In this document: piece after piece, positions 28,383-38,239 of the stretch | Position numbering within the stretch: the first letter of the stretch is position 1 | Layout of the letters: each line of letters starts with the position of its first letter | From: an uncultured Pelagibacteraceae bacterium | GTDB taxonomy: Bacteria > Pseudomonadota > Alphaproteobacteria > Pelagibacterales > Pelagibacteraceae | Assembly: GCA_902578115.1 (NCBI GenBank) | Contig: CACHBR010000001.1 | Span: 124,001-188,000, forward strand | Direction of reading: 5' to 3' | DNA length: 64,000 nucleotides | The notes under the pieces: generated by a model | Told to the model about the DNA's origin: nothing | Database searches by the model: none | Seen by the model: the letters and a program-made list of their open reading frames with translations, nothing else | Position numbers and translations under genes: made by a program

Positions 28383-28709
28383 ATGTGCCCAATTTGTTGG
28401 ATTAGTGGTTTTATTGCTGCTTTACTTGGCGGATCCATGATAGCTGTCGTAAATCACCCAATTTCATGGATAATAAGTGTTATTTTAATAGCATACGCAG
28501 TTTATAAATTCTATGAGTCGAGAAAAAGAGGTTTAAAAATGAATGACGAAACTAAAGCTAGAAATAGAAAAACTATTTTTAGATTTGTTCAAGGTGTTGT
28601 GCTTGGATCTTTCGTTACCGCTGCTGTTTTTTATAGTTTAACTTATAAAGAACATGAAAGAATGCACGATTTATTAGAACAACACGGTTTAGAAAAACAC
28701 GAACACTAG
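28383..28709 (+). CDS. Small membrane protein of unknown function
   Basis: 108-aa ORF with two hydrophobic segments, 3 nt after the pirin gene, MCPICWISG N-terminus. Confidence 0.6.
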   Translation: MCPICWISGFIAALLGGSMIAVVNHPISWIISVILIAYAVYKFYESRKRGLKMNDETKARNRKTIFRFVQGVVLGSFVTAAVFYSLTYKEHERMHDLLEQHGLEKHEH

Positions 28710-30016
28710 GACATCATCAAACTTGGAAGAAACAAACATATTGCAGGAAATGCAATAATAAGTGCAAGTCTAATCATATCAGTAAGTAAAAAGGGAAGAG
28801 TTCCAAACCAAATTGTTTGAAGAGGAGTTCTTTGCATTACACCTTTTATAACAAATAAATTCATCCCAACTGGGGGAGAAATTAAACCAAATTCAACCAC
28901 TATAACAGCGAATATACCAAACCAAATTGGATCTATACCCGCATCAGCAATTACAGGGTAAAAAACTGGTATTGTTAAAAATAACATAGCAAGCGAATCC
29001 ATTACTGTTCCAAGTACTAAGTAAATAGCACAGATAACAAGAATTATTCCAACCTGAGTTAATTGTAAGTCGTTAATGAAATCAACAACAGTAAAAGGTA
29101 ACTGCGTAACAGTTATTAAAACATTAAATACTGCAGCACCTATCACTATAAGATAAAGTGCACCAACAGTTTTGATTGTATCCCATACTGAATTTTTCAA
29201 CATTTCCAAAGTTAATTGTCTTCTAAAGAAAATAAAGATTAAAACCAAAATTACCCCAACCGCTGCACTCTCAGTTGCGGTAAAAAAACCTAAATAAAGT
29301 CCACCCATGATAATTGCAAAAATTAAAAATATGGGAAACACTTTCCATAAAGCAGCCATTCTCTCTTTAAATGGCATTTTGTTCCCGTACCCACCTTGGT
29401 CAGGATAAATTAAAAGATAAACTCTGATAGCAACCATATAAAGAACAACTGCTATTAAACCTGGTATCAAAGCAGCGAAGAAAAGTTTCTGAACAGATTG
29501 CTCAGTAAGATAAGCATATATAACTAAAATGACACTTGGTGGAATTATTATTCCTAAAGTTCCACCAGATGCAATCGATCCACTAATTAAAGCGTCACTG
29601 TAACCATGTCTTCTCATTTCTGGAGCTGCCATTTGTGACATCGTTGCTGCAGTTGCAATTGAAGAACCACAAATCATCCCAAAACCAGCACAGGCACCAA
29701 CTGTTGACATCGCAAGACCACCTTTATAATGACCTACAATTGCATAAGCTGCATCGTACAAATTTCTTGAAAGGTTAGCTCTATTTGCAAGATTACCCAT
29801 TAAAACAAAGAAAGGTAAAACTGATAAACTATACTTTGATACAGCTTCATAGGGTGCAGTACCCAAAATAAAAAAAGCTTGTTCAAACCCAACTATAAAT
29901 CCAAATCCAGCGAAACCCACTATTAGCATTGAAATTCCAATAGGAATATTAAGTGCCATTAAAATTAGAACTGCTAAAAAAGCCAATGCTCCATTAACTA
30001 TCGGATCAAAACTCAT
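28706..30016 (-). CDS. TRAP transporter large permease (DctM family)
   Basis: LNIPIGISMLIVGFAGFG, GHYKGGLAMSTVGACAGFGMICGSSIATAATMSQMAAPEMRRHGYSDALISGSIASGGTLGIIIPPS. Confidence 0.96.
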   Translation of the reverse strand: MSFDPIVNGALAFLAVLILMALNIPIGISMLIVGFAGFGFIVGFEQAFFILGTAPYEAVSKYSLSVLPFFVLMGNLANRANLSRNLYDAAYAIVGHYKGGLAMSTVGACAGFGMICGSSIATAATMSQMAAPEMRRHGYSDALISGSIASGGTLGIIIPPSVILVIYAYLTEQSVQKLFFAALIPGLIAVVLYMVAIRVYLLIYPDQGGYGNKMPFKERMAALWKVFPIFLIFAIIMGGLYLGFFTATESAAVGVILVLIFIFFRRQLTLEMLKNSVWDTIKTVGALYLIVIGAAVFNVLITVTQLPFTVVDFINDLQLTQVGIILVICAIYLVLGTVMDSLAMLFLTIPVFYPVIADAGIDPIWFGIFAVIVVEFGLISPPVGMNLFVIKGVMQRTPLQTIWFGTLPFLLTDMIRLALIIAFPAICLFLPSLMMS

Positions 30017-30491
30017 TTCTATTACTTTCTTTTATAGATTGAATAAACCAAAGTATTATTGCTAAAACACTTAACCACATTGCTATAGCTGTCGCGAAAT
30101 AAAATGGATAAAAACTTAACTCTAGATCGATAGTAACTCTCTTGTTTTCAAAAAAAGCAAAAGCCTCCTTTGTAGTACCATAGGCAACAAATGACATTAT
30201 TACTAACATCAAAATAAATCTTAAAACTATAATAAAAGTTTGTAATTTTGAAATAGCTATATTTTTAATAAAATCTGCTGACACATGAGCATTTAAAAAA
30301 AAGGCTCGAGGCATCGCAAGAAAAGCGACTAATGCAATTCCAAATTCTACAATTTCAATAGTACCTGCAACAGGAGAATTTAAAAAGCGTCTTCCAAAAA
30401 CATCACAAAAAGTAAGTATAGCTAAAGAAAATAAAATCAATCCAGATGCCATTGCGGCATAGTCAAAAATTTTATTTATTTTAATTTGCAT
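30006..30491 (-). CDS. TRAP transporter small permease (DctQ family)
   Basis: Four hydrophobic segments, TFCDVFGRRFLNSPVAGTIEIVEFGIALVAFLAMPRAFFLNAHVSADF; overlaps dctM-like gene. Confidence 0.92.
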   Translation of the reverse strand: MQIKINKIFDYAAMASGLILFSLAILTFCDVFGRRFLNSPVAGTIEIVEFGIALVAFLAMPRAFFLNAHVSADFIKNIAISKLQTFIIVLRFILMLVIMSFVAYGTTKEAFAFFENKRVTIDLELSFYPFYFATAIAMWLSVLAIILWFIQSIKESNRNEF

Positions 30492-30544
30492 AAGAATATT
30501 GTAGCCTAGCAGAGATTAATAGATAAAGGCATACATAATAATTT

Positions 30545-31396
30545 ATGAAATTTGTTTCTTTTTTGCTTAAAGGTCAGCCAAAATTCGGTATTTCTGATGG
30601 AAATAATATCACAGATCTTACAGGAAAAATTAAAGGCGCAGAGACTTTAAAAGAGCTTATATCAAATAAATCGATACAAGAGGCTAAAGATTTTTCAAAA
30701 AAAAATCCAGGAAAAATAAATCATGATGAAATCGAGTATCTCCCAGTAATTCCAAATCCTGGAAAAATAGTTTGTGTTGGCCTTAATTATAGTGAACACG
30801 TTAAAGAAACGGGAAGAACTGTAGAACAAAATCCTGTAATCTTTTTAAGAGTTCCTGAAAGTCAAACCGCACACAAACAACCAATTCAAAGACCAAAGGT
30901 ATCAGAAAGCTTAGATTATGAATGTGAGATGGCTGTAATAATGGGTAATGCTGGCAAACATATAAAACCTGAAGATGCTCTTAAACATATAGTGGGTTAT
31001 TCTTGTTATAATGAATGTACTGTTAGAGAGTGGCAACAACATACAAGACAATTTGGAATGGGTAAAAATTTTGAAAGAACAGGAAGCTTCGGACCTCATA
31101 TGATTTTAGCAGAAAACATCCCAGACTACACAAAATTATCAATCCAAACTCGCTTGAATGGAACAGTCATGCAAAGTGCAAAGTTGAGCCAATTAATTTT
31201 TGATATACCTAGCTTAATTACTTACGTTTCGAAGGCTATACCTTGGAGAGCAGGCGATGTTCTAGTAACAGGAACACCTGGCGGAGTAGGATTTAAGAGA
31301 AAACCACCTATTTTCATGAAAGATGGAGACAAAGTTGAGGTAGAGATCTCTGAAATTGGTATACTTTCGAACATAATTAAGGATGAAAAAATCTAA
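30545..31396 (+). CDS. Fumarylacetoacetate hydrolase (FAH) family protein
   Basis: PGKIVCVGLNYSEHVKETGR, DYECEMAVIMG, GYSCYNECTVREWQ, GDVLVTGTPGGVGFKRKPP. Confidence 0.92.
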   Translation: MKFVSFLLKGQPKFGISDGNNITDLTGKIKGAETLKELISNKSIQEAKDFSKKNPGKINHDEIEYLPVIPNPGKIVCVGLNYSEHVKETGRTVEQNPVIFLRVPESQTAHKQPIQRPKVSESLDYECEMAVIMGNAGKHIKPEDALKHIVGYSCYNECTVREWQQHTRQFGMGKNFERTGSFGPHMILAENIPDYTKLSIQTRLNGTVMQSAKLSQLIFDIPSLITYVSKAIPWRAGDVLVTGTPGGVGFKRKPPIFMKDGDKVEVEISEIGILSNIIKDEKI

Positions 31397-31442
31397 AATT
31401 AAAGTTAAGCTTTAAGAATAAATTAATTTATTTGGGGGAAAA

Positions 31443-32459
31443 ATGATTAAGAAAAAAGTAATTGGTTTTTTGTTTGGAGTTTTCTCTTTAAGTTTATTTA
31501 GCTCAGCATCTGCTACTGAACTTAAATTGGCAACTTTCGAACCACCAAAAGCCTTCATCGCTAGTAAAATACTAGGAGCGTGGGCTGAAAAAGTTAATAC
31601 GTGTGCAAATGGTAAACTGAATGTAAAAATGTATGCTGGTGGAGTTTTAGGTAGCCCACCTAAACAATATGACATTGTTACAAAAGGTGTTGCTGATATT
31701 TCATGGACTGTTTTAGGTTACATTGGAGGTCAGTTCCCTTTAAGTTCAGTAATAGAACTTCCATTTTTAACAAGAACATCTGCAGCAGGATCAACCGCTT
31801 TAAATACATTATATGACGAAGGGTATCTTGATAAAGAAATGTCAGGAATTCACTTGATCGGATTACATTCAAATCCTGGTTATCAAATTCATATGAAAAA
31901 TACTAAAGTTATGGATCCATCAGACTTTAAAGGAAAAAAAATGAGAGTTCCTAGTAAAATCGCAGGGACTATTCTTAAGACTTTAGGTGCTACTGGAGTA
32001 AAAGTTCCAGCGCCCGGTACTTATGAAGCTCTTAATAAAGGTGTCTTAGACGGAACACCTTTTCCTTATACAGCTGTAGGTTCATTTAAATTATTTGAAG
32101 TTACGAAATATCACACAGAAGTGAATATCACTAACGCTACTTTTGGATTAATAATGAATAAAGATAAATACAAAAGCTTAGACTCGGTACAAAAAAAATG
32201 TATTGATAAGTTTAGTGGTCATGCCTTCAGTGGTTGGGCTTCAAATTTAATTGATAGACAAAATGAAAAAATGAAAGAAGTTGTTGCAAATACTCCAGGT
32301 CATGAGATTGCAGTTGCTTCTCCAGCTGTTATTGCCAAGTATAAAAAAATACTTAAACCTATCGAAAAAGATTGGTTAGCAGAAATGAAAGGCAAAGGTC
32401 TTGATGGAGCTGGTGTGCTAAAAAGAGCCAGACAAATCATTAAGAAAATAGACGGCTAA
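31443..32459 (+). CDS. TRAP transporter substrate-binding protein (DctP family)
   Basis: Signal peptide MIKKKVIGFLFGVFSLSLFSSASA, LKLATFEPPKAFIASKILGAWAEKVN, DFKGKKMRVPSKIAGTILKTLGATGVKVPAPGTYEALNKGVLDG; GGGGGA-type RBS. Confidence 0.93.
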   Translation: MIKKKVIGFLFGVFSLSLFSSASATELKLATFEPPKAFIASKILGAWAEKVNTCANGKLNVKMYAGGVLGSPPKQYDIVTKGVADISWTVLGYIGGQFPLSSVIELPFLTRTSAAGSTALNTLYDEGYLDKEMSGIHLIGLHSNPGYQIHMKNTKVMDPSDFKGKKMRVPSKIAGTILKTLGATGVKVPAPGTYEALNKGVLDGTPFPYTAVGSFKLFEVTKYHTEVNITNATFGLIMNKDKYKSLDSVQKKCIDKFSGHAFSGWASNLIDRQNEKMKEVVANTPGHEIAVASPAVIAKYKKILKPIEKDWLAEMKGKGLDGAGVLKRARQIIKKIDG

Positions 32460-32473
32460 TAATAAAAAATCTA

Positions 32474-32510
32474 ATGAGCCCGCGTTATCTATAGCGGGCT
32501 CATGTTTTTT
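32474..32510 (+). terminator. Rho-independent terminator after the TRAP substrate-binding protein gene
   Basis: Perfect 10-bp stem ATGAGCCCGC / GCGGGCTCAT, 10-nt loop, followed by GTTTTTT. Confidence 0.92.
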
Positions 32511-32526
32511 CTAGTATAATAATAAT

Positions 32527-33501
32527 ATGGCAGTTTCGGCATTAAGTTATATAGGCGTTAACTCAGATAAACTTGAGGATTGGTCAGACTACTCTGAAAA
32601 ATGTTTAGGGATGCAGAAAGTTGACAGAGGTAAGGGCACCTTGTCTTTTCGAATGGATGACCACAAGCAAAGATTAGCCATTACAGGCGACACTGGAGAT
32701 AGTTTAGCTTTTGTTGGCTTTGAAGTTGATAAAAAAGAAGATCTCCAAACTTATGCATCTAAATTAGAATCTAAAAATATAAAAGTTACTTTAGGTAATT
32801 CTTCTTACTCAGATAAAAGATTTGTTCAAGAATTAATTCATTTTAACGATCCACAAGGTAACAGAGTCGAAATGGTTTATAATCCAATGAAAGATACCGA
32901 ACCATTTAAACCCTCAAGACCAATCTCTGGATTTAAAACTGGAGCATTGGGTATGGGCCATGTAGTTTTGCATGTAAAAGATTTCAATAAAGTTGTACCA
33001 TTTTATAGAGACATACTTGGTTTTAAAATTAGCGATTATAGTAATACACCAATCTCATTATGTTTTTTTCATATTAACGGTCGTCACCATAGTTTAGCAT
33101 TATTTGGTTCAGGAAAGGTTGGGTTTCACCATTTTATGGTTGAATATAATAGTCTCGACGATGTGGGTCAGGGTTATGATTTAGTTCAGTACAAAGATAA
33201 TGCTATAGCATACACCATGGGTCGTCACACCAATGATTATATGACATCATTTTATTCTATTACTCCTTCTGGATTTTTTGTCGAGAACGGATGGGGAGGA
33301 AGAATAATAGACCCAAGTTCATGGAAATCGCATGAAACATTTGAGGGACCAAGTTTTTGGGGGCATGAAAGACTTTATTTACCTGATGATGAAAGAATGA
33401 AATTTAGAAATAAACGTTTAGATACTGCTGCCAAAGGAAAACAAGCACCATTATTAGTAGATTGTCCATGGCTTTATTCAAAAATTAATAATAAAAACTA
33501 A
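32527..33501 (+). CDS. VOC-superfamily extradiol ring-cleavage dioxygenase-like protein (BphC type)
   Basis: Two VOC halves: MAVSALSYIGVNSDKLEDWSDY and LGMGHVVLHVKDFNKVVPFYRDILGF; HHFMVEY and SGFFVENGWGG place plausible H-H-E metal ligands. Confidence 0.82.
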   Translation: MAVSALSYIGVNSDKLEDWSDYSEKCLGMQKVDRGKGTLSFRMDDHKQRLAITGDTGDSLAFVGFEVDKKEDLQTYASKLESKNIKVTLGNSSYSDKRFVQELIHFNDPQGNRVEMVYNPMKDTEPFKPSRPISGFKTGALGMGHVVLHVKDFNKVVPFYRDILGFKISDYSNTPISLCFFHINGRHHSLALFGSGKVGFHHFMVEYNSLDDVGQGYDLVQYKDNAIAYTMGRHTNDYMTSFYSITPSGFFVENGWGGRIIDPSSWKSHETFEGPSFWGHERLYLPDDERMKFRNKRLDTAAKGKQAPLLVDCPWLYSKINNKN

Positions 33502-33519
33502 AAATATTTAATTCAAAAA

Positions 33520-34962
33520 ATGAAACATTACGATGTTATAATTGTAGGTTTAGGACCAACCGGTGGTACTTTAGCAAATTTATTAGCATTAAATGGTTTT
33601 TCAATTTTAATCTTAGAAAGAGAAAAAAATTTATATGCTTTACCTAGAGCTGTTCACTTTGATGATGAAATCATGAGAGTTTTTCAAACAATTGGTATTA
33701 CTAAAAAGTTTTTAAAAAACACCATAATTAATAAAGGTACTAAATTTGTGAATTCTAATGGTAAAGTATTGCTTGATTGGCCACGTCCAAAGTCAATAAC
33801 TGAAAATGGATGGTATCCTAGCTACAGATTTCATCAACCTGACTTAGAGAAAAATCTTCGAAATCGTTTAAAAACTTTTAAAAAAGTTAAACTCATGCAA
33901 AATACTGAGGTAACCAAAATCAAAAATAATAAAAATTCTGTTGATTTATTTTTTAAAAGTAAAAATAAAATACATAAAGCTTCCTCAAAATACGTAATTG
34001 GCTGTGATGGTGCACGTTCTACCACAAGAGAACAGATGGGTTCAGTTTTAGATAACTTAGGTTTTACACAAAAGTGGGCTGTTGTTGATTTGATATTAAA
34101 GAAAAATAAAAATAAATTACCAGATAGAACAATTCAATACTCAAACTCTGAAAGACCAGCCACATATTGTAGAAATGTTGGTAAAAGAAGACGATGGGAG
34201 TTTGCTATCCAGAACAATGAAAATGAAAAAGAAATATTATCTGATAAATATATTTGGAATTTCCTTAAACCCTGGCTTAGCCCAAAAGAAGCTTACTTAG
34301 AAAGAAAAGCAATTTATATTTTTCAATCTGCAATAGCAAGAAAGTGGAGAAAGGGTAGAATTTTTATTGCTGGAGATGCCGCACACCTTATGCCACCGTT
34401 TATGGGCCAAGGAATGTGTGCGGGTATAAGAGACGCATCAAATTTAGCTTGGAAAATTAGTTTATGTATTAAAAACAAACATGATGGAAAATTTTTAGAC
34501 ACTTATCAAACCGAAAGATTTTCAAATGCAAAAGAATATATCGAGACAACAATGCGAATGGGAGAATTCGTAAACGCAGTAGGTTCAGAGAATATCACTG
34601 ACAATATTTCTTCTGGACCAGATGGTACTAAAAGTATGCAATCAATAAAGCCTAAATTAGGAATTGGTCTTGGAAGTAATAAAGATAAAAATAGAGGTAA
34701 AATTTTTCCACAACTTAAAATGAAAAATGGCAAAAGGTTAGATGAAAAATTTTCAAAATCGCCATTATTACTCACATCATCTAAATTAGCTAAAAAAGTT
34801 TCTTTAAAAATTCAGTCAATTACAGATAAAGATATAAAAGGTCTGAGCAACTTATTAAAAACCTATAAAGCAAAAGCAATTATTGTTCGACCAGACAGAT
34901 TCATTCTTAAAACATACAAGTCAATAAATGATTTTAATCGAATAAATTATTTGCCGCTTTAA
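33520..34962 (+). CDS. FAD-dependent aromatic hydroxylase, MhpA-like
   Basis: YDVIIVGLGPTGGTLANLLALNGF dinucleotide-binding motif, VIGCDGARSTTREQMG, IFIAGDAAHLMPPFMGQGMCAGIRDASNLAWKI. Confidence 0.87.
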   Translation: MKHYDVIIVGLGPTGGTLANLLALNGFSILILEREKNLYALPRAVHFDDEIMRVFQTIGITKKFLKNTIINKGTKFVNSNGKVLLDWPRPKSITENGWYPSYRFHQPDLEKNLRNRLKTFKKVKLMQNTEVTKIKNNKNSVDLFFKSKNKIHKASSKYVIGCDGARSTTREQMGSVLDNLGFTQKWAVVDLILKKNKNKLPDRTIQYSNSERPATYCRNVGKRRRWEFAIQNNENEKEILSDKYIWNFLKPWLSPKEAYLERKAIYIFQSAIARKWRKGRIFIAGDAAHLMPPFMGQGMCAGIRDASNLAWKISLCIKNKHDGKFLDTYQTERFSNAKEYIETTMRMGEFVNAVGSENITDNISSGPDGTKSMQSIKPKLGIGLGSNKDKNRGKIFPQLKMKNGKRLDEKFSKSPLLLTSSKLAKKVSLKIQSITDKDIKGLSNLLKTYKAKAIIVRPDRFILKTYKSINDFNRINYLPL

Positions 34963-35803: not shown

Positions 35804-38104
35804 ATGAGATTAATTCAATTATTATTTTTACTAGCTAGTATAACAATTTGTCTTGAAACAAAAGCTATAGCCCAAGCTACTTTGGCATGGGAAACCACAG
35901 TAAGACCTGAGGGTTCTAATTTGACCAGCTCAGAGGGAGCTACAATTACTAGAGATGCATTTCAAGACCCAACCGGTATAGCTTTTAGTAATAATGGTAA
36001 AAAAGTTTTTGCATCCAACAGAGATGTAGGTGGTACTCATGAATGTATAAAACAGATGAATCTTAAAACTCCTTACGATTTTAGAACAGCCTCTACAGTT
36101 GTTGATGAGGCATCACCATTAGAGACAAAAGTAGGTCTTTCGGGTAATGCCAATATAAGATGTACAGATCTTAGATTTAACAGAGATGGAACTCAATTGT
36201 TTGTATCAAACATAACGGGAAAAATTCATGGATTTGATTTAGCCAAACCATTTGATCTTAAAAATTTAACTTATAACAGTAATGTGTCAGCTGATTTTGG
36301 TACCTATATAAGTTTTAATTTTAACAATGAAGGAACAAAACTTTTTGTATTAGATGGTGCACAAGACGGACAACACATCGATGAGTACAATTTATCAACT
36401 GCTTACGATCTAACATCTGCAACCTTAAGCAATACACTGAACTTAGAAGCAGATCCAACAAACACCCATTTGGGTGACAAGGACCATGGAAGATCTTTAC
36501 GATTTACTCAAGATGGAAGATCAATGTTTATTTTAATTCAAGACGGAGATAATAATAACAACACCACCTTAGACTCTATTTTTCAATTTAGATTAACTCG
36601 ATCTTTTGACACAAGTAGCGCATCTTTGATTGGTTCAGTTACTTTACCAGAAACACTTAATTTAGCTGGCTTAGGATTAGCCTTTAGTCCTGGAGGGGAC
36701 AAACTATACATAGCTAGTGATTTAGGTCCCCAAGTTTTACAAGAGAGAATGATTGATGGTAATAGTACAGATGTTGTTGTCCAAGTAAACTTATCTTGTA
36801 ATTTCGGTATAGCTGCTTGCGTATCTGACCCAACATCAGGCCTTGCTACTCAAATTCAATTAGCAAAAAATAATGTAAGCGAAAATAGTTCAGTAATATT
36901 TAAGAGATTTGAATGGATAAAAAGAAATAGAAACAGAAATAATTTTAATAATTTCAATGCTTCTATTAAGTCAGACAATTTACTTCTAAACTATTTATTT
37001 GATAAAGCCCAAGACAAAGCAGTTATACAAACTGCATCACTTAAAAAAAATTCAAGTAAAGATAAAAAAAATAATTGGTCCTATTGGAGTAATGGTGACT
37101 TAACTTACGGCAATTATCATGGAAAAACAGATGTTTTTGGGACAGCTTTAGAAAAACCTAAAGATATTATTACTAGTGGTATTACTTTTGGAGTAGATAA
37201 AAAAAATAGTAAAAACAATTTTTATGGCTATGCAATTAGATATGCAGATGGCAAAGCTCGCCTTGGTAGCTCAGGTGATACTTTGATGGACTCAACGACC
37301 TTGAATTATTACTTTATTACGCCTTTTAATGATAATGGATACAGTAATATGGTTTTAGGTTTAAGTTCATTAAAATATAAACTCCAAACTCAAGGTACCG
37401 TAACTGGAAATAGAAATGGTCAACAAATTTTTACAACGATCGACGTTAGAAATGATAGTGAATTTGGCAGTTTTAACTTTACGCCATCATTTAAATTAAA
37501 ATATGCAATAACCGAATTGTCAGATTTCACAGAGTTTATGACCAATGTATCCTCTGGGGCAACAAACGTAATTTACGGGAGTGATAGTTTTGCAGTTGGT
37601 GATTTAGCAACAGGAATTTTATTTAATACTGATCCATTTAAATATAACAATAAAACAATATCTCATAACGGTGGGCTAGAATTTGTTTACGACTATTCTC
37701 CTGATAATAATGCTGATTATTCTTTTTCTGACACTTCTAATACTGAACTTTATGAAATTGAAAAATATTCCCAATCAAATATTAGATTGAGCTATGGAAT
37801 TGAGGAAGTTTATGAGAATAATCTTACTTTATCATTTAACTACGAGAGATTACAGCATTTAGACTCACTTAATTATGGTAGCAATGATAATTCGTATTTA
37901 GAGAGTTTTTTTCTCAAGGTAGGACATATAAAAGAGGAAGATTATCAATTAGCCCTAAGTTTAGATGCTTTACAAGATTATAAACTCAATAGCCACTATT
38001 CAAAAAAATTAGGTGTATTTGATTTAGATGTTGATGCTAATTATAATTTTACGAGTGTAGTTCCTGAATACGGCGCGTTGGTACAGATCTCAAATAAATT
38101 TTAA
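35804..38104 (+). CDS. Secreted beta-propeller-like protein with C-terminal outer-membrane beta-barrel (autotransporter-like)
   Basis: Signal peptide MRLIQLLFLLASITICLETKAIAQA; repeated motifs FDLAKPFDLKNLTY, YNLSTAYDLTSATL, FRLTRSFDTSSASL; C-terminal alternating-strand region ending in Phe. Start at 35804 preferred over 35735. Confidence 0.7.
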   Translation: MRLIQLLFLLASITICLETKAIAQATLAWETTVRPEGSNLTSSEGATITRDAFQDPTGIAFSNNGKKVFASNRDVGGTHECIKQMNLKTPYDFRTASTVVDEASPLETKVGLSGNANIRCTDLRFNRDGTQLFVSNITGKIHGFDLAKPFDLKNLTYNSNVSADFGTYISFNFNNEGTKLFVLDGAQDGQHIDEYNLSTAYDLTSATLSNTLNLEADPTNTHLGDKDHGRSLRFTQDGRSMFILIQDGDNNNNTTLDSIFQFRLTRSFDTSSASLIGSVTLPETLNLAGLGLAFSPGGDKLYIASDLGPQVLQERMIDGNSTDVVVQVNLSCNFGIAACVSDPTSGLATQIQLAKNNVSENSSVIFKRFEWIKRNRNRNNFNNFNASIKSDNLLLNYLFDKAQDKAVIQTASLKKNSSKDKKNNWSYWSNGDLTYGNYHGKTDVFGTALEKPKDIITSGITFGVDKKNSKNNFYGYAIRYADGKARLGSSGDTLMDSTTLNYYFITPFNDNGYSNMVLGLSSLKYKLQTQGTVTGNRNGQQIFTTIDVRNDSEFGSFNFTPSFKLKYAITELSDFTEFMTNVSSGATNVIYGSDSFAVGDLATGILFNTDPFKYNNKTISHNGGLEFVYDYSPDNNADYSFSDTSNTELYEIEKYSQSNIRLSYGIEEVYENNLTLSFNYERLQHLDSLNYGSNDNSYLESFFLKVGHIKEEDYQLALSLDALQDYKLNSHYSKKLGVFDLDVDANYNFTSVVPEYGALVQISNKF

Positions 38105-38154: not shown

Positions 38155-38239
38155 GCCCTCGTGGTGAAATGGTAGACACAAAGGACTTAAAATCCTTGCC
38201 CGCAAGGGAGTGACAGTTCGAGTCTGTCCGAGGGCACCA
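38155..38239 (+). tRNA. tRNA-Leu (anticodon UAA)
   Basis: GCCCTCG acceptor pairs with CGAGGGC, ACTTAAAAT anticodon loop, long variable arm, encoded CCA. Confidence 0.95.

What the first reader, a model, noticed from the sequence alone, without database searches (positions are those of the whole stretch)
35804..38104. Propeller-plus-beta-barrel surface protein with degenerate repeats
A ~766-aa secreted protein has a signal peptide, repeated blade-like motifs (e.g. YNLSTAYDLTSATL, FRLTRSFDTSSASL) and a C-terminal barrel-like half ending in Phe. Such an autotransporter-like architecture is large for a streamlined cell and may mediate attachment, phage interaction or substrate capture. It lies next to a catabolic module and has its own plausible promoter.
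Basis: partly seen in the sequence, partly recalled or inferred. Interest (0 to 1): 0.6.

Follow-up and report, generated by a model that had tools for sequence, protein, structure and literature searches.

The report
SAR11 autotransporter with a propeller head
A SAR11 ocean bacterium carries a gene for a surface protein that anchors itself in the outer membrane with a beta-barrel and holds out a five-bladed propeller; relatives swap propellers between barrels and the outward face varies most, which suggests a diversifying binding protein of unknown target.

Summary
Window 35804-38104 (+) encodes a 766-aa secreted protein of a Pelagibacterales (SAR11) genome. Its C-terminal half matches the autotransporter beta-domain PF03797 (55.6 bits, cutoff 26), and its model's best structural matches are autotransporter barrels (EstA, EspP, NalP). 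The N-terminal half is modelled as a five-bladed propeller closed by its first strand, followed by an invariant Cys pair and a 33-residue helix. It belongs to a multi-copy SAR11 family that includes the HVR1 "autotransporter" genes of HTCC1062 (SAR11_0042/0044/0046), so the kind is known.

Not found described in the papers searched: (1) all 120 members compared have 57-59 residues, four predicted strands, beyond the point where ordinary autotransporters end, so the barrel may have 16 strands rather than 12 (low model confidence). (2) Passengers and barrels recombine at the linker; pairs range from 26% passenger/90% barrel to 90%/55% identity, and AU tests reject shared histories. (3) Variation concentrates on one propeller face, inferred to point outward.

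The gene is an accessory insertion beside tRNA-Leu; its adjacency to the catabolic module is not conserved, and no promoter stands out above chance. Most likely a surface-displayed, diversifying binding head; the ligand is unknown.

The parts
35804..38104 (+). CDS of the propeller autotransporter, 766 aa plus stop (P0001)
   Evidence: full-length relatives
35804..35872 (+). Signal peptide, residues 1-23
   Evidence: hydrophobic N-terminus read from the sequence; helix 2-19 in the model
35873..36796 (+). Passenger, residues 24-331: five-bladed beta-propeller; strand 27-33 supplies the last strand of blade 5
   Evidence: AlphaFold2 strands, repeat statistics, profile match to a YVTN-type surface-layer propeller (1l0q, E 2.8e-9)
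35969..36112 (+). Blade 1, residues 56-103
36161..36295 (+). Blade 2, residues 120-164
36308..36442 (+). Blade 3, residues 169-213 (holds YNLSTAYDLTSATL)
36485..36643 (+). Blade 4, residues 228-280 (holds FRLTRSFDTSSASL)
36668..36793 (+). Blade 5, residues 289-330, completed by strand 27-33
36797..36820 (+). Cysteines 332 and 339, invariant in 61 aligned members; possible disulfide at the exit of the propeller
36830..36928 (+). Linker helix, residues 343-375, with the most conserved stretch of the family (STIFKRFEWIKRNR type); also where passenger/barrel recombination switches
37076..37927 (+). Canonical autotransporter barrel, 12 predicted strands, residues 425-708
37163..37846 (+). Part matched by PF03797, residues 454-681 (55.6 bits, cutoff 26, E 8.9e-15)
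37928..38101 (+). C-terminal extension, residues 709-766: four predicted amphipathic strands beyond the end of ordinary autotransporters, ending in an invariant Phe
   Evidence: low AlphaFold confidence
38155..38239 (+). tRNA-Leu(UAA); its 5' flank is a variable site in this genus

Best explanation
The gene encodes a classical-type (type Va-like) autotransporter. The protein is exported by Sec, the C-terminal barrel is inserted in the outer membrane through its C-terminal strand, and a helix-containing linker holds a five-bladed propeller outside the cell. The propeller most likely acts as a binding head. Its loops on the face away from the cell diversify fast, and intact propellers are moved between barrels by recombination at the conserved linker, while the display module is kept. 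The gene is an accessory insertion next to tRNA-Leu. Shown by computation: family membership, domain architecture, recombination between domains, one-face variability, accessory distribution. Inferred: surface exposure, orientation of the variable face, binding rather than catalysis, and selection by phages, grazers or changing ligands.
For: PF03797 above its cutoff in the window protein's C-terminal half and matched in 23 of 27 members on their own. Model with signal helix, propeller, linker helix and barrel; top PDB matches are autotransporters EspP, EstA, NalP, AaaA, Hbp and BrkA. Passenger and barrel histories conflict: pairs at passenger 0.26/barrel 0.90 and passenger 0.90/barrel 0.55, with the switch at the linker; AU tests reject barrel clades on passenger data (p 1.3e-6, 7.6e-10) and passenger clades on barrel data (p 8.9e-76, 4.0e-9). 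Loops BC+DA have mean entropy 2.99 bits against 1.64 for AB+CD (p 7e-18); against the closest relative 19 differences lie in BC+DA and 0 in AB+CD (Fisher p 2e-4); dN/dS is about 1.15 in the passenger and 0.19 in the barrel. In 61 aligned members the invariant passenger residues are Gly, Phe and Leu plus the Cys pair just after the propeller, with no invariant catalytic-type polar residue. Accessory: 4 of 31 genomes of the genus, empty and alternative sites at tRNA-Leu.
Against: No experiment shows surface exposure, expression or a ligand. Propellers can be enzymes, and some relatives match Lactonase or Phytase-like models, so a relaxed or lineage-specific catalytic role is not excluded. The dN/dS near 1 rests on few changes (30.5 nonsynonymous, 7.5 synonymous) and was not tested against 1; it fits relaxed constraint as well as diversifying selection. 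Orientation of the variable face is deduced from strand order, not from coordinates. AlphaFold confidence is moderate (mean pLDDT 76.5) and low in the linker and the last strands. Most genomes are short-read single-cell assemblies.
Confidence: 0.72

Rival explanations
1. It is an autotransporter, but the propeller is an enzyme (lactonase, phosphoesterase or glycosidase-like) displayed to process dissolved organic matter.
For: Some relatives match Phytase-like (E 7e-9), Lactonase (5.5e-5) or SGL models. Five-bladed propellers include many glycosidases (own knowledge).
Against: Invariant passenger residues across 61 members are structural (Gly, Phe, Leu) and no polar catalytic set is conserved. 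The window protein itself matches no enzyme family.
Confidence: 0.15
2. It is a phage or predator target or decoy: variation and shuffling are driven mainly by escape from phages that bind the propeller.
For: Variable face, passenger swapping, accessory distribution, hypervariable-region location in HTCC1062 (PMC2217521).
Against: No relative was found in viral contigs, and no receptor data exist. The same pattern would follow from changing ligands or grazers.
Confidence: 0.3
3. It is an ordinary outer-membrane channel or porin with a periplasmic propeller that gates or feeds it, not an exporter of its own propeller.
For: A 16-strand barrel would be porin-sized. FadL and OmpG also appear among the structural matches, at weaker E-values.
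Against: PF03797 match above cutoff, linker helix directly before the barrel as in autotransporters, autotransporters as the best structural matches, and one-face hypervariability that a periplasmic domain would not explain.
Confidence: 0.08
4. Passenger/barrel shuffling is partly an assembly artefact of short-read single-cell genomes with tandem copies.
For: Most loci are short-read single-cell assemblies, and one same-locus pair shares 56 identical bases in the linker (L036).
Against: Median longest shared linker stretch between copies of one locus is 10 bases. Most shuffled genes have no other copy in the locus or share only 7-12 bases with it. Conflicts recur across many genomes with distinct, non-identical barrels.
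Confidence: 0.07

Closest known systems
SAR11 HVR1 'autotransporter' genes of Candidatus Pelagibacter ubique HTCC1062 (SAR11_0042, SAR11_0044, SAR11_0046; PMC2217521)
   Same: Same family: homologous over most of the length, PF03797 at 89, 152 and 103 bits, propeller-like N-terminal half, C-terminal extension ending in Phe.
   Different: The window copy is a single gene next to tRNA-Leu(UAA), not in the HVR1 array, and shares about 30% identity with its best HTCC1062 match.
Classical type Va autotransporters (PF03797; EstA, NalP, EspP, BrkA)
   Same: Signal peptide, N-terminal passenger, linker helix, PF03797 barrel, terminal aromatic residue; best structural matches.
   Different: 58 more residues and four more predicted strands at the C-terminus; passenger is a propeller rather than the usual beta-helix.
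XatA of Xylella fastidiosa (PMC3426408)
   Different: Six LGxL repeats, another repeat type; no homology was tested here.
Giant coastal SAR11 autotransporter adhesin (PMC12636525)
   Same: Large SAR11 surface protein annotated as an autotransporter, proposed for adhesion; giant SAR11 proteins seen here contain the same propeller repeats.
   Different: The giant proteins read here gave no match to this barrel, and the one scanned has DUF4347 and cadherin/VCBS repeats; whether they are the published gene was not tested.
Modular antigen-variation surface families such as Anaplasma Msp2 and Neisseria Opa
   Same: Multi-copy outer-membrane family with variable exposed parts and recombination (own knowledge).
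   Different: Here whole passengers move between barrels across species; within-clone switching was not tested.

Membership tests
Type Va (classical) autotransporter | C-terminal PF03797 beta-domain | tested here: met
   55.6 bits over a cutoff of 26 for residues 331-766; 23 of 27 relatives match. The full-length query was not reported, so the match was found with the C-terminal half.
Type Va (classical) autotransporter | N-terminal signal peptide and passenger before the barrel in one polypeptide | tested here: met
   Sequence and model
Type Va (classical) autotransporter | Alpha-helical linker leading into the barrel | tested here: met
   Helix 343-375 in the model; its place inside the pore was not seen
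Type Va (classical) autotransporter | 12-stranded barrel | tested here: inconclusive
   12 canonical strands to residue 708 plus four predicted strands to 766 at low confidence; ordinary autotransporters end where strand 12 ends
Type Va (classical) autotransporter | Passenger exposed on the cell surface | not testable with these tools
   Needs protease shaving or labelling
Type Vd / Vb (16-strand, POTRA-bearing) | POTRA domain | tested here: not met
   No POTRA match in the Pfam scans
SAR11 HVR1 autotransporter family | Homology over passenger and barrel with SAR11_0042/0046 | tested here: met
   G026 matches E 9.4e-40 and 1.0e-39, ORFs
SAR11 HVR1 autotransporter family | Location in HVR1 beside carB | tested here: not met
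   The window gene lies between a BKACE gene and tRNA-Leu
Beta-propeller (YVTN/PD40-like) | Four-stranded blades around an axis with ring closure | tested here: met

The most novel reading that the evidence does not exclude
SAR11 and a few other alphaproteobacteria carry a distinct autotransporter subtype whose barrel has 16 strands, made by adding two hairpins after the canonical twelfth strand, and it serves as an exchange platform on which propeller heads with one hypervariable outward face are swapped between lineages by recombination at a conserved linker.
Probability: 0.45. Interest if true: 0.7.

Novelty: new variant of a known kind. Interest (0 to 1): 0.55.

Why it matters
SAR11 cells are among the most abundant on Earth and are thought to be stripped down, yet many keep several copies of a large, fast-varying surface protein whose function is unknown. 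A modular display system with a variable face gives a concrete candidate for what phages, grazers or ligands meet at the SAR11 surface. A PF03797 barrel with four more strands would also test how fixed the 12-strand design is and how a wider pore affects passenger export.

Tried and rejected
Full-length Pfam, NCBIfam and PDB sequence searches gave nothing; the C-terminal half alone gave PF03797, so the first negative was a sensitivity effect. Viral contigs held no relative, so a phage origin is not supported. PHROGs gave nothing. A functional link to the neighbouring catabolic module was rejected: relatives have the module without the gene (G125, G107, G145) and the gene without the module (G091, beside genes that look like a zinc transporter). 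A dedicated promoter was not supported. Misassembly as the cause of shuffling was tested by shared linker DNA and judged minor. No report of a 16-strand PF03797 barrel was found in the searches made; the library holds open-licence papers only.

Full report
OBSERVATION. The window lies in a 958,940-base, 82% complete genome (G000). Its relatives in the named collection are Pelagibacteraceae single-cell genomes. The ORF at 35804-38104 (+) is 766 aa with a signal-peptide-like N-terminus and a terminal Phe. The blade motifs are far above chance: five 17-residue segments score 252 against 77.6 +/- 17.1 in shuffles. It is the only match in its own genome.

ARCHITECTURE. Full-length searches of Pfam, NCBIfam and PDB sequences found nothing useful. 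In a set of 27 relatives, 23 matched PF03797, the autotransporter beta-domain (best 7e-23), and the window protein's C-terminal half alone matched it at 55.6 bits, cutoff 26. AlphaFold2 with 61 sequences (mean pLDDT 76.5, pTM 0.71) gives a signal helix, five blades with strand 27-33 completing the fifth, a helix at 343-375, a low-confidence stretch at 377-423, and barrel strands from 425. Cys332 and Cys339 are invariant in 61 members. Foldseek ranks the autotransporters EspP, EstA, NalP, AaaA and Hbp first. WD-repeat propellers follow at E-values near 1e-6, and the family profile matches the YVTN-type surface-layer propeller 1l0q at 2.8e-9.

C-TERMINAL EXTENSION. Twelve strands are predicted from 425 to 708. 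Ordinary autotransporters end there: the whole barrel of L125 aligns to family profile positions 11-367 of 427 and leaves four residues, and the ordinary members measured have about 21-26 residues after the PF03797 match against 74-91 in this family. All 120 members compared have 57-59 residues beyond residue 708 and end in Phe. Four strands are predicted there, two of them with strong hydrophobic alternation (differences 4.0 and 3.6 on the Kyte-Doolittle scale). The models are weak in this part (block means of about 43-66), so a 16-strand barrel is a prediction, not a result. Two genomes outside the order (G984, G1073) carry propeller repeats plus an extended barrel, and Pelagibacterales of another family carry barrels with a different C-terminal tail. 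The reviews consulted describe type Va barrels as 12-stranded.

FAMILY AND PRIOR KNOWLEDGE. Relatives occur in 54 of 297 genomes of the family by single-sequence search, 108 of 297 of the order by profile (some of these matches are giant propeller proteins without the barrel) and 4 of 31 of the genus. Copies are often in tandem, up to four in one locus. The single-contig genome G026 (1,308,759 bases) has three members at the place, strands and gene order of SAR11_0042, 0044 and 0046, listed as autotransporters in hypervariable region 1 of HTCC1062 (PMC2217521, PMC2704228). That G026 is HTCC1062 rests on this match and on the genome length known to me. The family is therefore known by annotation; no functional study was found. 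A propeller passenger was predicted earlier for XatA of Xylella (PMC3426408). A giant SAR11 autotransporter adhesin was reported in coastal genomes (PMC12636525).

DOMAIN SHUFFLING. Mean pairwise identity is 0.30 in the passenger, 0.58 in the linker and 0.43 in the barrel. Pairs with barrel at or above 0.8 and passenger under 0.4 number 66; the reverse (passenger at or above 0.8, barrel under 0.6) number 5; sliding identity switches at the linker. Trees from the two halves conflict with strong support, and AU tests reject four named clades on the other half's data, p from 1.3e-6 to 8.9e-76; those clades were chosen after seeing the trees. Shared linker DNA between copies of a locus is short (median 10 bases), which argues against misassembly as the main cause. 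The window gene shows no mosaic signal: its four nearest relatives are the same for passenger and barrel.

ONE VARIABLE FACE. Loops were classed by strand order. BC and DA loops, which share one face in a propeller, have mean entropy 2.99 bits; AB and CD loops have 1.64 (p 7e-18), and indels sit almost only in the former and beside strand D. Against the closest relative the differences are 19 of 111 versus 0 of 59 (p 2e-4); against the next, 66 of 111 versus 19 of 59 (p 1e-3). dN/dS against the closest relative is 1.15 in the passenger and 0.19 in the barrel. Since the chain leaves the propeller after a strand C, on the AB/CD side, the variable face should point away from the membrane; this is inference from topology.

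GENOMIC SETTING. In the genus, the 5' flank of tRNA-Leu(UAA) is variable: BKACE directly before the tRNA in G125, genes that look like phosphofructokinase and pyruvate kinase in G107, G056, G145 and G111 (one or both), the autotransporter in G000 and G067, and the autotransporter with a likely zinc-transporter gene on its far side in G091. The adjacent catabolic module is thus not a functional partner.

MECHANISM. Sec export, BAM-assisted insertion through the C-terminal strand, passage of the propeller and its folding outside follow established autotransporter biology and were not tested here. Binding is favoured over catalysis because no polar active-site set is conserved. Target and selective agent are open.

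LIMITS. Predictions have moderate confidence; most genomes are short-read single cells; literature was searched only in an open-licence library.

Noticed in passing
L121:4064-10831, L120:6088-12777, L122:3737-13540, L123:123-9914: Propeller repeats of the same kind sit inside giant SAR11 proteins (2230-3268 aa) without this barrel; the one scanned (L121) has DUF4347 and cadherin/VCBS repeats, so the propeller module seems to travel between secretion routes.
   Followed up: partly
L036:7500-9569: A CHASE2 plus SpoIIE-phosphatase gene borders the family about 50 times in 80 named loci, a possible regulatory partner.
   Followed up: no
L039:12329-13198: An inverse-autotransporter beta-domain (IAT_beta, E 1.4e-30) of 290 aa borders the family at 8 places.
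   Followed up: no
window 38155-38239 and its 5' flank: The 5' flank of tRNA-Leu(UAA) is a variable insertion site in this genus: nothing, genes resembling pfk/pyk, or the autotransporter.
   Followed up: yes
window 28706-34962: A module of TRAP transporter, FAH-like hydrolase, glyoxalase/dioxygenase-like and FAD monooxygenase genes (names read from sequence, not profiled) is conserved in relatives that lack the autotransporter.
   Followed up: partly
L036:10001-19239: Four family members in direct tandem in one locus, two of them with 27% passenger and 88% barrel identity.
   Followed up: yes
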